Of a stretch of DNA of 64,000 nt, positions 37,765 to 55,818 are shown one piece after another. The position numbers and the translations under genes are program-made. This DNA comes from Streptomyces silaceus. GTDB lineage: Bacteria > Actinomycetota > Actinomycetes > Streptomycetales > Streptomycetaceae. Numbering within the stretch: position 1 is the stretch's first letter; each line of letters starts with the position of its first letter. Location: assembly GCF_001419745.1 (NCBI RefSeq), contig NZ_LIRJ01000042.1, forward strand, positions 1 to 64,000, given 5' to 3'. Under the pieces are notes generated by a model. The model was not told the origin of the DNA and did not search any database. It saw only the letters and a list, made by a program, of their open reading frames with translations.

Positions 37765-48792
<11,028 letters not shown>

Positions 48793-48930
48793 CGGCCGAT
48801 GACTGCCAACAGTCAATTTCTACCTGGAAGTTGCCGCAGGAGGAAATATGCGAGTTTTTCAATTCGCCGAGAAAAAAGAGCAGTTCAAATGCGTACATCA
48901 ACTCTGCCACACCGCTAACGAGAGTGACAA

Positions 48931-48946
48931 TGTGACGGGGGTCACA
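48931..48946. promoter_or_regulatory. Crp-type operator, TGTGAC-N4-GTCACA
   Basis: A perfect inverted repeat with 6-bp arms. It fits the classical cAMP-receptor-protein consensus TGTGA-N6-TCACA exactly, and also the GTG-N6-GNCAC form described for Streptomyces coelicolor Crp. Its centre lies about 147 bases upstream of the PKS A start and about 330 upstream of the dehydratase start. Binding is inferred from sequence match only. Confidence 0.55.
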
Positions 48947-48948
48947 AG

Positions 48949-48980
48949 ACGTTCTTGCTGGTCCAGGGCGTCAAGAACGT
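48949..48980. promoter_or_regulatory. Inverted repeat ACGTTCTTG-N14-CAAGAACGT
   Basis: Perfect 9-bp arms (48949-48957 and 48972-48980) separated by 14 bases, starting two bases after the Crp-like site and abutting the direct repeat. The spacing of about two helical turns suits a dimeric DNA-binding protein better than a transcription terminator: there is no U-tract and the loop is long. The binding protein is unknown. Confidence 0.45.
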
Positions 48981-49014
48981 GCCAAAGAAGTGCTGTTGAC
49001 ATGCCAAAGAAGTG
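48980..49014 (+). promoter_or_regulatory. Direct repeat TGCCAAAGAAGTG x2, 22-bp period
   Basis: Two identical 13-base copies (48980-48992 and 49002-49014), 22 bases apart, which is two helical turns, with a TTGACA hexamer (48996-49001) between them. Direct repeats with 11- or 22-bp period near the -35 element are the usual target form of SARP-type pathway activators in Streptomyces. The SARP link is inference; the repeats are directly visible. Confidence 0.5.
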
Positions 49015-49083
49015 TCGAGTGGATGCACGGAAGCCCTACGCGGGGGCCCGGATGATGGTCATGCCACGGTCTACAGAATCGAG

Positions 49084-49112
49084 TTGACAGCCGCCGCCGT
49101 GAGACGTAGGAC
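49084..49112 (+). promoter_or_regulatory. Candidate promoter for the sugar genes
   Basis: TTGACA (49084-49089), a 17-base spacer, then TAGGAC (49107-49112). This is close to the Streptomyces HrdB-type consensus (TTGACa, 16-19 bases, TAgnnT), lacking only the final T. It would give a leader of about 150 bases before the dehydratase ATG. A second TTGACA at 48996 with GTGGAT 17 bases later is a weaker alternative that coincides with the direct repeat. Confidence 0.45.
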
Positions 49113-49269
49113 TAGCCAAGGCCCAGAAAACCCAGGACTATCCGCACCCACTTCGGGGAATAGCGCAGCCGACGGCCTCTCAACTGCGTATCCACGCCGG
49201 TGCGGCACAATGCGCCACCTCCCCCACCACTCCGCCACGCGAACCGCGCCAGGGAACAAGGAGCGACTG

Positions 49270-50769
49270 ATGACGCACGCCCCGTCGGGCAGCGCCAACG
49301 TCTTGACCAGGCCGGAGAACCGCTCGGCCACCGGAATCGCCCGTTCCATGCGTGACGTGGACCACGCCGTCACAAGCCTGCGGGATTTTCACACGTGGTT
49401 CGACGCTTACCGAGACACGGAACAGTCGAAGATTCGTCACATCCCGTTTACGGAACTACAGGGCTGGCGATTCGAGGAGTCGAGCGGAAACCTGGTCCAC
49501 GACAGTGGCCGATTCTTTTCGGTACAGGGTCTGCGCGTGCGCAACGCCCCTGGCGGGGTGCCCTCCTGGGAGCAACCGGTCATCCATCAGCCCGAAGTCG
49601 GCGTACTGGGCATTCTGGTCAAGGAATTCGACGGTATACCGCACTGCCTGATGCAGGCGAAGATGGAGCCGGGAAACCACAACGGCGTACAGCTCTCACC
49701 CACTGTTCAGGCGACCCGGAGCAACTACACCCGGGTGCACGGCGGCCGGGCGGTGCCGTATCTCGACTACTTCCGGAATGCCGCACGCCACCGCGTGCTC
49801 GCCGATGTGCTCCAGTCGGAGCAGGGCTCCTGGTTCTACCGGAAACGCAATCGGAACATCGTCGTCGAGACCACCGAGGACGTGGAGCTGCTCGAAGGCT
49901 TCTACTGGCTGTCCGTCGGCCAGCTGCACGCGCTGCTCGCGGTGGACGATCTCGTGAACATGGACGCGCGCACCGTGATGTCCTGCCTCCCGTTGACGGA
50001 CCCCGCGTTACCCGGCTTCGGGTCCCCTGGCGGTGATCCACGATCACCCTATCCGGTCGAGGACGACACCGTCCGTTCTTCTCTGGCACGGTCGCTGGAT
50101 CCCGGCCACGGCGCACTGCACCCGCTCGGCTCCGTACGGAACTGGATCAGCGGCGTGCGGGCCGAATTCGACGGCCACGCCGAGCTGGTGGACCTCGGCG
50201 CCATCGGCGGCTGGCACCGCTCGGCGGAGCGGATCTCCCATGAATCCGGCCTGTTCTTCGACGTGATGGCCGTGGACGTACGCACGGGCAGCCGCGAGAT
50301 CGGCGGCTGGACCCAGCCGATGATCGAGGCGCGCGGCCAAGGCGTCGTGGCCTTCCTGGTGCAGCGGATCGACGGGGTGCTGCACGCCCTGACCCGGGTC
50401 AAGCACGAGGCCGGCTTCATGGACGCGGTCGAACTCGCACCCACCGTGCAGTGCACCCCCGAGAACTACACCGTACTGCCGCCCGAGGCCGCTCCCCCCT
50501 TCCTGGACGAGGTGCTGCACGCCCCGGCCGACGCCATCCGCTTCGACAGCGTGCTCTCCGAGGAGGGCGGCCGGTTCTTCCACACCCGCAGCCGCTATCT
50601 GATCGTCGAGGTCCCCGCCGGGCGCGAGCTGCGGGCACCGGAGGACTACCGCTGGCTGACGGCCCATCAGCTGTCCGGGCTCGTCCAGCACAGCAACTAC
50701 CTGAACATCCAGGCCAGGAGTCTGCTCGCCTGCCTGCACAGCCTGTTGCGCCAGACCAGAGGGGAATGA
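49270..50769 (+). CDS. NDP-hexose 2,3-dehydratase
   Basis: Enzyme that removes the C2 hydroxyl of NDP-4-keto-6-deoxyglucose, the committed step to 2,6-dideoxysugars (TylX3/EryBVI/OleV/EvaA family). The 499-residue protein shows the family's internal duplication: a first copy near residues 50-245 (Trp/Phe-rich start, then LSPTVQATRSNY) and a second near 285-480 (LAPTVQCTPENY). Length is normal. The start ATG at 49270 has AAGGAG 6-7 bases ahead; longer in-frame readings upstream lack this. Codon 247 (50008-50010) is TTA, so translation should depend on the bldA tRNA. Its stop overlaps the next start (ATGA), making it the first gene of a coupled sugar operon. The product is an unstable 3,4-diketo sugar, which the next gene should reduce. 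Confidence 0.93.
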   Translation: MTHAPSGSANVLTRPENRSATGIARSMRDVDHAVTSLRDFHTWFDAYRDTEQSKIRHIPFTELQGWRFEESSGNLVHDSGRFFSVQGLRVRNAPGGVPSWEQPVIHQPEVGVLGILVKEFDGIPHCLMQAKMEPGNHNGVQLSPTVQATRSNYTRVHGGRAVPYLDYFRNAARHRVLADVLQSEQGSWFYRKRNRNIVVETTEDVELLEGFYWLSVGQLHALLAVDDLVNMDARTVMSCLPLTDPALPGFGSPGGDPRSPYPVEDDTVRSSLARSLDPGHGALHPLGSVRNWISGVRAEFDGHAELVDLGAIGGWHRSAERISHESGLFFDVMAVDVRTGSREIGGWTQPMIEARGQGVVAFLVQRIDGVLHALTRVKHEAGFMDAVELAPTVQCTPENYTVLPPEAAPPFLDEVLHAPADAIRFDSVLSEEGGRFFHTRSRYLIVEVPAGRELRAPEDYRWLTAHQLSGLVQHSNYLNIQARSLLACLHSLLRQTRGE

Positions 50770-52752: not shown

Positions 52753-54006
52753 ATGCAGGTCTCGCTCGTTGTCACAGGTTCACGGGGTGACGTCCAGCCG
52801 TTCATCGCGCTGGGCAGGACCCTGACGGCCCGCGGACATTCCGTGATCCTCGCCACCCACGGGGACTTCGAGAAGCTGGTCCGCGAGGCCGGCCTCGACT
52901 TCGCCGAACTCCCGGGCAGCCCGCGGGACTTCCTCGCGCACCCGGCCCTCGCCGAGGCGCTCCAGCAGGGCGCCTCGCTGTTCCGCGCGGCGCGCAAGGT
53001 GCCGCGCCAGACGCCCGAGCACATCCGCCTCCTGGCCTCCCGCATCGCGGAGGTGTGCGAGGGAGCCGACCTGGTGGTCAACAGCGTGCTGAGCCGGATC
53101 CTGTTCCAGGACAACGGCAAGGCGCCCTGGGCGTCGCTGACCTGGTGGCCGCTGCCGCCCACCAAGCAGTGGCCGGCCATGATGGCGCCGCAGAGCAAGT
53201 CGGGCCCGATATACAACCGCGTGACGCACAAGATGGCCGGTCTCCTGGACTGGGTCTCCATCCGCGGCTACCGCAAGGACGCGGGCATGCCGCCGCTGCC
53301 GTTCGGCGCGCCCTACCGCGAACTGGGCCGCGACGTCCCGCTGCTGTGCCCGGTCACCCGCGAGATGTTCACCGAGCCCGGCGACTGGCCCGCGCTGTCG
53401 AAGTTCACCGGCTACTGGTTCTGGGACCGCGAGTGGAGCCCTTCGGACGCGCTCGTCGACTTCATGGAGGCCGGGGATCCCCCGGTGACGCTGTCGTTCG
53501 GCAGCATCTGGCCGGTGCACCAGCCGGACAAGACGCTGCGCAAGGTGCTCGGCGTGGTCCGCTCGTACGGCAAGCGCCTGGTGCTGGTGGGCGGCGGCCC
53601 CGAGGAGGTGCCGGACGACGTGTTCCGCGTCGAGGACGTGCACTACCCCTGGCTGTTCCCCCGCTCGTCGGCCGTCATCCACCACGGCGGCTGCAACACC
53701 ACGGGCGAGGCGCTGCGTTCGGGTACGCCGCAGGTCGTCGTGCCGACGTTCGCGGACAGTCCGTTCTGGGCGGCGCAGGTGCACCGGCTCGGTGTCTCCC
53801 CCAAGCCCATCCCGTTCTCGAAGTTCACCGCCGAGCTCCTTGACGAGGCCCTCGGCAAGGCCCTCAACGACGAGGCCATGGCGAAGCGCGCGGCGACCAT
53901 CGGCGAGGCCGTGCGTGCCGAGCAGGGCACCGAGACGGCCGTCGACATCCTGGAGGACTGGGTGAAGCGGTGGCGCGGGCCGGGCGGGGCGAACGCCGGT
54001 GCGTGA
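52753..54006 (+). CDS. Macrolide glycosyltransferase (GT1, GT-B fold)
   Basis: 417-residue NDP-sugar glycosyltransferase that should attach the deoxysugar to the polyketide. The N-terminus has the acceptor-domain motif GSRGDVQPFIALG (residues about 9-21). The C-terminal donor domain has HHGG..TTGEAL..GTPQVVVP near residues 305-330 and DSPFWAAQV..LGVSPKPIPF, the pattern of the sterol-glucosyltransferase-like branch of GT1 that also includes antibiotic glycosyltransferases. Start: ATG 52753 with GGAGG four bases ahead. It sits between the deoxysugar reductases and the type II thioesterase, and is the only glycosyltransferase in the window. Acceptor and sugar are inferred from the cluster. Confidence 0.9.
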   Translation: MQVSLVVTGSRGDVQPFIALGRTLTARGHSVILATHGDFEKLVREAGLDFAELPGSPRDFLAHPALAEALQQGASLFRAARKVPRQTPEHIRLLASRIAEVCEGADLVVNSVLSRILFQDNGKAPWASLTWWPLPPTKQWPAMMAPQSKSGPIYNRVTHKMAGLLDWVSIRGYRKDAGMPPLPFGAPYRELGRDVPLLCPVTREMFTEPGDWPALSKFTGYWFWDREWSPSDALVDFMEAGDPPVTLSFGSIWPVHQPDKTLRKVLGVVRSYGKRLVLVGGGPEEVPDDVFRVEDVHYPWLFPRSSAVIHHGGCNTTGEALRSGTPQVVVPTFADSPFWAAQVHRLGVSPKPIPFSKFTAELLDEALGKALNDEAMAKRAATIGEAVRAEQGTETAVDILEDWVKRWRGPGGANAGA

Positions 54007-54903: not shown

Positions 54904-55305
54904 TCAGCCCCCGTCGTGCTCCACGGCGGGGGCCGACCCCATGGTGAGGACGATCTCCAGCGGCGTCCCCGCGTCCCGCCAGTACTCCACCGCCGCGGAG
55001 AACACCTCCTGCGCGATCTCCCACTCCCCCGGCGCCGTGCGCGCGTACTCCTGCCAGCCGGAGACGACGAGCAGCCGCCCCGCCGCGGGCGGCGCCCACG
55101 ACAGATCGGTGAGGCAGTCCGCGAGGGCGTCCCAGTTGCGCCCGAACCAGTCGGGCAGCGCGAGGCTGCTTGCGCAGCGCTCCATGAGGCCCGCCTTGTC
55201 GCCGACCCCGGCCAGGGGCAGCGTCCAGGTGGTCCACCCGGAGCCGCGCGCCGCGTCGAGCACGGGAGCGAGCGGATCGGGTGTCGTGTCAGTACCGCCG
55301 GCCAT
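54904..55305 (-). CDS. Barstar-like ribonuclease inhibitor
   Basis: 133-residue acidic protein with the barstar core WFGRNWDALADCLTDL (about residues 53-68), the segment that in barstar carries the helix and Asp residues plugging the RNase active site. Its ATG shares one base with the stop of the adjacent RNase gene (TAATG), so the two are translationally coupled and should be made together. Predicted role: cytoplasmic protection against the neighbouring RNase. Streptomyces barstar homologues that inhibit RNase Sa are known; that this one inhibits its neighbour is inferred. It ends 51 bases from the convergent thioesterase gene. Confidence 0.87.
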   Translation of the reverse strand: MAGGTDTTPDPLAPVLDAARGSGWTTWTLPLAGVGDKAGLMERCASSLALPDWFGRNWDALADCLTDLSWAPPAAGRLLVVSGWQEYARTAPGEWEIAQEVFSAAVEYWRDAGTPLEIVLTMGSAPAVEHDGG

Positions 55306-55724
55306 TACCTGAGCACCGCCTTGAAGGACGCGTAGTGGTCATCGGTGTAGTAGAACTCGCCGCCGTTCCCGGTGACGATCCGCCGGGCCCCGCGGTCGCG
55401 CTCGCCCGGCGTGCGGACGGTGTACTCGTGGTAGTAGCCGCGTTTGCGCTGCGGCAGCTCCCGCTCGAAGTTGCTGAAGACACTGCCGTCCTTCCCGTAC
55501 GGGAAGGGGCCGCCGTCGTCGATGCGCCGCAGCGTGGTCCGGGCCTCCGCGGGGAGCCGTTCGGCCCGCACGGTCGCCATCCCACGGGCCCAGGCGGGCA
55601 CGGAGGCGGCGGAGGAGGCGCTCCCGCTCCCGCCGTCGCCGCCACCGGACGAACAGCCCGAGACCAGGAAGGCGACACAGACCAGCAGCACCCCGAGGAC
55701 GCGGGGAATGAAACGGGACACCAT
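55305..55724 (-). CDS. RNase Sa/barnase-family ribonuclease, lipoprotein form
   Basis: Small guanyl-type ribonuclease, 139 residues. Residues 1-23 form a signal peptide ending in a lipobox (LVSG-Cys24), followed by a Gly/Ser-rich linker, so a membrane-anchored extracellular protein is predicted. The catalytic domain starts near 52 and matches RNase Sa, with its active-site residues at Glu100 (YYHEYTV), Arg111, Arg115 (ARRIVTG) and His130 (DDHYASF). The two Cys that form the RNase Sa disulfide are absent; only Cys16 and Cys24, both in the signal region, occur. The ATG at 55724 is chosen for the signal peptide, and no strong ribosome site is seen. It is coupled to the barstar gene. Confidence 0.87.
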   Translation of the reverse strand: MVSRFIPRVLGVLLVCVAFLVSGCSSGGGDGGSGSASSAASVPAWARGMATVRAERLPAEARTTLRRIDDGGPFPYGKDGSVFSNFERELPQRKRGYYHEYTVRTPGERDRGARRIVTGNGGEFYYTDDHYASFKAVLR

Positions 55725-55742
55725 GCGACAGATGCTGCCACA

Positions 55743-55767
55743 GCGGGCCCCGCACGGCAGGGCCCGC
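55743..55767. other. Stem-loop in the RNase gene leader
   Basis: Perfect 8-bp arms (GCGGGCCC at 55743-55750, GGGCCCGC at 55760-55767) with a 9-base loop, 18 bases ahead of the RNase ATG. It could limit RNase expression or belong to the 3' end of the upstream regulator transcript; no U-tract follows. Confidence 0.35.
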
Positions 55768-55818
55768 AGGGGGCGCGGGGCACCGCACACCGGGCCGCTC
55801 AGGGCCCGTGGGCGGATT

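What the first reader, a model, noticed from the sequence alone, without database searches (positions are those of the whole stretch)
48949..49014. Adjacent inverted repeat and 22-bp-period direct repeat without a local regulator
A 9-bp inverted repeat (ACGTTCTTG/CAAGAACGT) touches a tandem pair of TGCCAAAGAAGTG spaced two helical turns apart, with TTGACA between the copies. The direct repeat has the form of a SARP site; the inverted repeat suggests a second, dimeric factor. No regulator of either type is encoded among the cluster genes seen here.
Basis: partly seen in the sequence, partly recalled or inferred. Interest (0 to 1): 0.6.

Follow-up and report, generated by a model that had tools for sequence, protein, structure and literature searches.

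The report
Divergent antibiotic promoters with Crp box
The repeats lie in an ordinary control region between two sets of antibiotic genes; what a related bacterium keeps there is a neighbouring Crp-type switch site and two promoters, while the reported repeats were seen in this genome only.

Summary
Both repeats exist. The 13-bp direct repeat (period 22) is not chance (0 of 500 shuffles); the 9-bp inverted repeat is marginal (7 of 300). They lie in a 531-bp gap between a modular polyketide synthase (minus strand) and a deoxysugar operon (plus strand). The direct repeat sits in a weak 11-bp-period array of SARP-like form; likeness to the PimR/SanG/PolR heptamer is not significant. Neither repeat is found in three related gaps. 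The two 50-bp blocks best conserved with Streptomyces mutomycini are (i) a Crp-type box TGTGACGGGGGTCACA (48931-48946) with TTGATG at fixed spacing toward the synthase and (ii) a TTGACA-17-TAGGAC promoter (49084-49112) of the sugar operon. HB132 has a TGTGAN6TCACA box; Kibdelosporangium has none. Exact boxes number 4 in the 8.74-Mb genome, all between open frames; a Crp gene is present. No SARP, LuxR or TetR domain was found among the frames scanned at the right edge or at the probable left edge (S. mutomycini). Best reading: a Crp-controlled divergent promoter region plus a genome-specific repeat. Known kind, modest interest.

The parts
37765..48738 (-). First modular type I polyketide synthase gene (3 KS, 3 AT domains), start TTG about 48738 (frame is open up to 48816, so a longer start is possible)
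   Evidence: Pfam scan; in S. mutomycini the ORF starts at the aligned TTG, the first start codon after the stop
48896..48901 (-). TTGATG, candidate -35 of the synthase promoter; 37 bases from the Crp-box centre in both window and S. mutomycini (which has a further TTGATG 18 bases from the centre)
   Evidence: inside the most conserved ungapped 50-bp block, 34/50, best of 100 shuffles 31; spacing; no clear -10 seen
48931..48946 (.). Crp-type box TGTGACGGGGGTCACA; fits GTG(N)6GNCAC on both strands
   Evidence: 0 of 1000 shuffles of the gap hold TGTGAN6TCACA; 4 exact TGTGACN4GTCACA places in 8.74 Mb, reversed control 0, all 4 between open frames; related boxes in L010 and L012; consensus as quoted in PMC10033298
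48949..48980 (.). 9-bp inverted repeat ACGTTCTTG/CAAGAACGT, 14-nt spacer
   Evidence: 7 of 300 shuffles; not conserved
48980..49014 (+). Direct repeat TGCCAAAGAAGTG x2, period 22
   Evidence: 0 of 500 shuffles; not conserved
48969..49030 (+). Array of 11-bp period: CGTCAAG TGCCAAA TGCTGTT TGCCAAA TGTCGAG TGCACGG with 4-bp spacers; candidate SARP-type operator, weak beyond the 22-bp repeat
   Evidence: likeness to the PimR heptamer not significant
49084..49112 (+). Promoter of the deoxysugar operon: TTGACA (49084-49089), 17 bp, TAGGAC (49107-49112)
   Evidence: 25 of 33 bases of 49084-49116 identical in S. mutomycini, 49101-49116 16/16; GTTGACAGC also in L012, in a block no better than shuffles
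49270..50769 (+). NDP-hexose 2,3-dehydratase, first gene of the deoxysugar operon
   Evidence: PF03559, E 1.1e-157
52753..54006 (+). Glycosyltransferase of the same operon
   Evidence: PF03033, PF06722
54106..54852 (+). Type II thioesterase, last cluster gene on this side
   Evidence: PF00975

Best explanation
48739-49269 is the divergent control region of a glycosylated modular polyketide cluster. Its two elements conserved with S. mutomycini are a sigma-70-type promoter of the deoxysugar operon (49084-49112) and a Crp box (48931-48946) at fixed distance from a candidate -35 of the synthase gene. Most likely the global regulator Crp binds the box, about 72 bp upstream of the inferred synthase start, and activates that promoter as a class I activator. 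The reported repeats sit in the spacer between the two promoters and would be transcribed from neither. The direct repeat and its 11-bp array were seen in this genome only: either the operator of a SARP encoded elsewhere, or a 22-bp tandem duplication without function. Shown: sequence, conservation in one orthologous pair, rarity of the box, presence of a Crp gene. Inferred: Crp binding, activation, transcription starts, SARP role.
For: Best conserved ungapped 50-bp blocks against the S. mutomycini gap are 48896-48945 (34/50) and 49081-49130 (33/50); best of 100 shuffles 31; the reported repeats fall in neither. In the gapped alignment the box keeps 13/16, the promoter stretch 25/33, the repeats 22/66. 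L010 carries TGTGACGTGGATCACG (1 mismatch to TGTGAN6TCACA; 13 of 1000 shuffles as good) and HB132 (L012) TGTGAGCTGCATCACA (0 mismatches; 1 of 1000). The first synthase and the dehydratase are orthologous at all three junctions (synthase 80%, 67% and 61% protein identity over the matched starts). With up to 1 mismatch the box TGTGACN4GTCACA occurs at 17 places in the own genome against 2 for the reversed control, and 12 against 2 in S. mutomycini. The own Crp (C55, L173) has cNMP-binding and Crp HTH domains and matches full-length actinobacterial CRP/FNR-family chains at E 2.5e-81 to 4.3e-77. Streptomyces Crp consensus GTG(N)6GNCAC and a box predicted between fkbB and fkbO of the FK-506 cluster: PMC10033298, passages. 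Crp binds promoters of the regulators of four S. coelicolor antibiotics: PMC6627628, passages. Crp overexpression raised two heterologous antibiotics threefold: PMC12093943, passages.
Against: No binding or expression data. No clear -10 for the synthase promoter. The HB132 box fits GTG(N)6GNCAC on neither strand and the L010 box on one strand only; both differ at 2 bases from TGTGACN4GTCACA and so are not among the places. Box-to-gene distances differ in HB132, and the HB132 gap as a whole is no more like the window than shuffles. No box in Kibdelosporangium (best 3 mismatches, 705 of 1000 shuffles as good, on a stretch that includes synthase coding sequence). In HB132 (15 against 12) and Kibdelosporangium (25 against 33) the box with 1 mismatch is not enriched over control. 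PMC10033298 saw no band shift with tagged S. tsukubaensis Crp at the cya promoter and PMC12093943 found Sco3571 binding nonspecific in its capture assay (passages). Rex, BldD or another Crp/Fnr protein could use a similar palindrome (recalled).
Confidence: 0.6

Rival explanations
1. The 11-bp array (48969-49030) is the operator of a SARP or SARP-LAL regulator encoded elsewhere, working beside Crp.
For: 11-bp steps; arrays of 4, 5 and 6 units at period 11 beat all 200 shuffles, mostly because of the direct repeat itself; flanking units resemble the repeat, P about 0.012, units picked after looking; same layout of heptamers with 4-bp spacers as the PimR footprint TGGCAAGaaagCGGCAGGtgttCGGCAAG, which also does not overlap a -35 (PMC3367932, passages); 20 BTAD matches in the own genome.
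Against: Three units reach only 5.5% of shuffles, and a C-rich period-10 array at 49192-49241 of the same gap also beats all 200 shuffles, so the statistic is not specific; no such array at this place in 3 of 3 related gaps; PimR-heptamer likeness not significant (7% for the five-unit array); the own genome has 4 places of TGCCAAAN15TGCCAAA with up to 2 mismatches, this one included, against 9 for the control; 0 of 20 BTAD genes here and 0 of 8 in S. mutomycini have the KS string DTACSSS in the flanks fetched (several lie at contig ends).
Confidence: 0.3
2. The direct repeat is a recent neutral 22-bp tandem duplication and the inverted repeat is chance.
For: The alignment with S. mutomycini has a 19-base gap here; 48985-49014 keeps 4 of 30 bases; an inverted repeat of this quality in 7 of 300 shuffles; neither is found again in the own genome in exact form.
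Against: Weak resemblance of the units between and beside the copies (P about 0.012); the inverted repeat with 3 mismatches is more frequent than its control (8 against 2).
Confidence: 0.45
3. The 48931-48946 palindrome is the site of another factor, such as Rex, BldD or a second Crp/Fnr protein.
For: Rex and BldD sites have similar halves (recalled, from no call).
Against: The window's box fits GTG(N)6GNCAC on both strands; the own genome encodes a full-length Crp.
Confidence: 0.2

Closest known systems
Crp boxes of Streptomyces (S. coelicolor SCO3571 regulon; predicted boxes in the FK-506 cluster of S. tsukubaensis)
   Same: Fits GTG(N)6GNCAC and lies in a gap between genes of a polyketide cluster, like the box predicted upstream of fkbB and fkbO (PMC10033298, passages).
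   Different: Perfect 6-bp arms; no cluster-situated regulator was seen, so Crp would act on structural genes directly; binding not tested.
PimR/SanG/PolR-type SARP operators (heptamers CGGCAAG, 4-bp spacers)
   Same: 11-bp period, heptamer-like units, off the -35 as for PimR (PMC3367932, passages).
   Different: Units are TGCCAAA or TGTCGAG and one does not fit; likeness not significant; no SARP gene seen near; not conserved.

Membership tests
Streptomyces Crp binding site | Match to GTG(N)6GNCAC | tested here: met
   GTGACGGGGGTCAC at 48932-48945, both strands; consensus from PMC10033298, passages
Streptomyces Crp binding site | Crp gene in the genome | tested here: met
   C55:21797, PF00027 and PF13545
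Streptomyces Crp binding site | Kept between the same genes in relatives | tested here: inconclusive
   S. mutomycini 1 mismatch at the aligned place; HB132 a TGTGAN6TCACA box that does not fit GTG(N)6GNCAC; Kibdelosporangium none
Streptomyces Crp binding site | cAMP-dependent binding in vitro or ChIP signal | not testable with these tools
   -
SARP operator | Heptameric direct repeats spaced 4-15 nt (11-bp or 22-bp period) | tested here: met
   22-bp repeat; the 11-bp part is weak
SARP operator | Heptamer sequence of a known SARP class (CGGCAAG) | tested here: inconclusive
   score reached by 3-48% of shuffles at period 11 and 7-64% at period 22
SARP operator | Repeats overlap the -35 of the target promoter (PimR is a known exception) | tested here: not met
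   the conserved -35 begins at 49084, 54 bases past the array's end; no -10 seen for the TTGACA at 48997
SARP operator | SARP gene in or next to the cluster | tested here: inconclusive
   none among frames scanned at the two edges; 0 of 20 own BTAD genes beside a KS string; contig gaps remain

The most novel reading that the evidence does not exclude
A large glycosylated polyketide cluster with no regulator of its own, switched directly by the global regulator Crp as a class I activator of its first synthase gene, and in this one species additionally captured by a SARP encoded elsewhere through a newly arisen 11-bp-period array between the two divergent promoters.
Probability: 0.12. Interest if true: 0.5.

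Novelty: new member of a known kind. Interest (0 to 1): 0.3.

Why it matters
It names a concrete control point (a 16-bp Crp box and two promoters) of a large polyketide cluster that I did not identify, tied to cAMP signalling rather than to a regulator seen in the cluster, so Crp overexpression is a direct way to try to raise or wake the product. It also shows that the conspicuous repeats of a region need not be its conserved elements.

Tried and rejected
Tried: the gap's DNA against 392 genomes of the genus: besides the own genome only two short matches, 79% and 81% over 62 and 47 bases, not followed. A 1201-base query in 296 relatives: every listed match other than the own begins at query base 872 or later, inside the dehydratase gene. 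The cluster's regulator: SARP flanks in own genome and S. mutomycini; the left part traced through S. mutomycini contigs; contig C256 is 3 kb long, so the left part was found only in pieces. LuxR-type large ATPases in S. mutomycini C346 (L245) and C26 (L138) and own C350 (L256) could not be placed in or out of the cluster. About 100 kb of Kibdelosporangium left of L011 was listed as open frames only, without family scans, and its regulators were not used.

Rejected: TTGACA at 48997-49002 as a -35; the ACGTTCTTG inverted repeat as the main dimer site; a transcribed leader (both candidate promoters point away from the repeats). Product: carbamoyltransferase plus deoxysugar genes recall venturicidin-type macrolides, a guess from memory, not tested; PMC9416504 (passages) mentions S. 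mutomycini only in a 16S comparison. Gao et al. 2012 is not held and is cited through PMC10033298 and PMC6627628. Search listings only: apart from the papers named with passages; PMC10972967 passages.

Full report
Observation. The inverted repeat (48949-48957/48972-48980, 14 nt between) and the direct repeat (48980-48992 and 49002-49014, period 22) are present as reported. In dinucleotide shuffles of 48745-49270 a perfect direct repeat of 13 nt or more appeared in 0 of 500 and an inverted repeat of 9 nt or more with spacer up to 20 in 7 of 300. In the own genome (8,742,210 bases, 732 contigs) TGCCAAAGAAGTG is exact only here; with one mismatch there are 5 places against 11 for the pattern read backwards. 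The inverted repeat with up to 3 mismatches has 8 places against 2 for the control, the 7 others all with 3 mismatches.

Setting. The repeats lie in a 531-bp gap. Left, on the minus strand, is the first modular polyketide synthase gene, start TTG about 48738. Right, from ATG 49270, are an NDP-hexose 2,3-dehydratase, a GFO/IDH-type reductase, an epimerase-family reductase, a glycosyltransferase and a type II thioesterase. Beyond 54852 come a barstar/ribonuclease pair, a gene with the sugar-binding domain of SorC-type regulators (family name recalled) next to ribulose-phosphate epimerase, and rRNA methyltransferase and formyltransferase genes, so I take the cluster to end there. The window is bases 1-64000 of a contig of 64,405, so the left part of the cluster lies on other contigs.

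Related gaps. One scan of named genomes with the dehydratase found 206 relatives and kept 80. I printed the upstream DNA of 7 (L010-L014, L020, L022) and used the three with the divergent synthase layout: S. mutomycini (L010, dehydratase 76%), Streptomyces sp. HB132 (L012, 61%) and Kibdelosporangium banguiense (L011, 63%); the layout of the other 73 was not examined. The first synthase is collinear with the window's in all three: 80% over 1593 columns, 67% over 1498 and 61% over 1940. S. mutomycini matches the window's synthase genes further at 78-87% DNA identity in pieces between 3352 and 48752, not without gaps, and to near position 54. The stretches that I cut for HB132 and Kibdelosporangium are approximate: the Kibdelosporangium one includes synthase coding sequence, the HB132 one leaves out about 80 bases next to the synthase (inferred).

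What is conserved. Against S. mutomycini, the two best ungapped 50-bp blocks are 48896-48945 (34/50) and 49081-49130 (33/50); the best in 100 shuffles was 31. The first holds TGTGACGGGGGTCACA and, 37 bases from its centre on the minus strand, TTGATG, with the same spacing in both species. The second holds TTGACA-17-TAGGAC of the sugar operon. By gapped alignment the box keeps 13 of 16, the promoter stretch 25 of 33, the reported repeats 22 of 66 bases. The HB132 gap as a whole is no more similar to the window than shuffles, but it holds TGTGAGCTGCATCACA (0 mismatches to TGTGAN6TCACA; 1 of 1000 shuffles as good); S. mutomycini has 1 mismatch (13 of 1000); Kibdelosporangium none better than 3 (705 of 1000).

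The box. The window's box fits the Streptomyces Crp consensus GTG(N)6GNCAC on both strands, the S. mutomycini box on one, the HB132 box on neither. The consensus comes from passages of PMC10033298, because the original paper is not held; the same passages report no band shift with the tagged S. tsukubaensis Crp at the cya promoter. TGTGACN4GTCACA occurs at 4 places in the own genome, reversed control 0; all 4 fall between open frames by my simple gene caller, and one (own C35) recurs beside the same genes in S. mutomycini and HB132. With one mismatch: own 17 against 2 control, S. mutomycini 12 against 2, HB132 15 against 12, Kibdelosporangium 25 against 33; the excess is clear in two of four genomes, and the boxes of L010 and L012 at this gap, with 2 mismatches to this stricter form, are not in those counts. 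A Crp protein with cNMP-binding and Crp HTH domains is encoded.

The repeats. From 48969 the sequence steps in 11-bp units CGTCAAG, TGCCAAA, TGCTGTT, TGCCAAA, TGTCGAG, TGCACGG with 4-bp spacers. Arrays of 4, 5 and 6 units scored above all 200 shuffles, 3 units reached 5.5%; this is mostly the 22-bp repeat itself, and a C-rich period-10 array at 49192-49241 also beat all 200 shuffles. The three units at -11, +11 and +33, picked after looking, match the repeat at 15 of 33 bases, P about 0.012 against random 11-mers of the gap. The layout is that of the PimR footprint (PMC3367932, passages), but likeness to its heptamer is not significant: 48%, 7%, 3% and 7% of 100 shuffles for 2, 3, 4 and 5 units at period 11, with the 3- and 4-unit bests on the other strand. 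No array was found at the equivalent place in the related gaps; HB132 gave a borderline six-unit array elsewhere (1.5%), and the Kibdelosporangium stretch gave GC-rich arrays scoring above the window's, which by position lie in its synthase coding part.

Regulators. L263 (S. mutomycini contig C129) holds a synthase end, a carbamoyltransferase, further frames of which one has an ABC ATPase domain, rmlB- and rmlA-like genes on the other strand, a phosphopantetheinyl-transferase-like frame and a peptide synthetase with a luciferase-like domain; 8 frames were scanned (two without any family) and none has a SARP, LuxR or TetR domain. That L263 is the left edge of this cluster is an inference: own synthase contig C327 matches it over 1.6 kb (80%) and C133 over 4.6 kb (85%), the identity seen for the rest of the cluster, but no unbroken sequence links C327 to the window. 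None of the own genome's 20 BTAD hits, and none of 8 in S. mutomycini, has the KS string DTACSSS in the flank fetched, although some flanks are only a few kb or end at the hit. So a regulator of the cluster was not seen but cannot be excluded.

Mechanism. Inferred: Crp binds at 48931-48946, about 72 bp upstream of the synthase start expected from TTGATG, a distance usual for class I activation (recalled), and so links the cluster to cAMP. Passages of PMC6627628 say that Crp binds promoters of the regulators of four S. coelicolor antibiotics. The sugar operon has its own promoter at 49084, with the box about 180 bp upstream of its expected start. The repeats lie between the two promoters and would be transcribed from neither.

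Verdict. The feature reported is real but is the genome-specific part of an ordinary divergent control region whose conserved elements lie beside it. New member of a known kind; interest 0.3.

Noticed in passing
window 54904-55790: Barstar-like inhibitor and a guanyl-type ribonuclease side by side on the minus strand, immediately beyond the thioesterase that ends the cluster.
   Followed up: partly
L263:3441-5282 (S. mutomycini): Carbamoyltransferase directly after a synthase gene's end; with the deoxysugar genes it recalls venturicidin-type macrolides (guess).
   Followed up: partly
own genome C35:2121-2136, S. mutomycini C28:21337, HB132 C1:144063: TGTGACTTGAGTCACA is identical in three genomes beside the same flavin-reductase-like gene (label by eye): a likely Crp-type site.
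   Followed up: partly
L245:4766-7621 (S. mutomycini C346): A LuxR-type large ATPase regulator lies between modular synthase genes; whether it belongs to this cluster could not be decided.
   Followed up: no
window 49192-49241: C-rich array of 10-bp period (CCACGCCGGT GCGGCACAAT GCGCCACCTC CCCCACCACT CCGCCACGCG) in the leader of the sugar operon, above all 200 shuffles.
   Followed up: no
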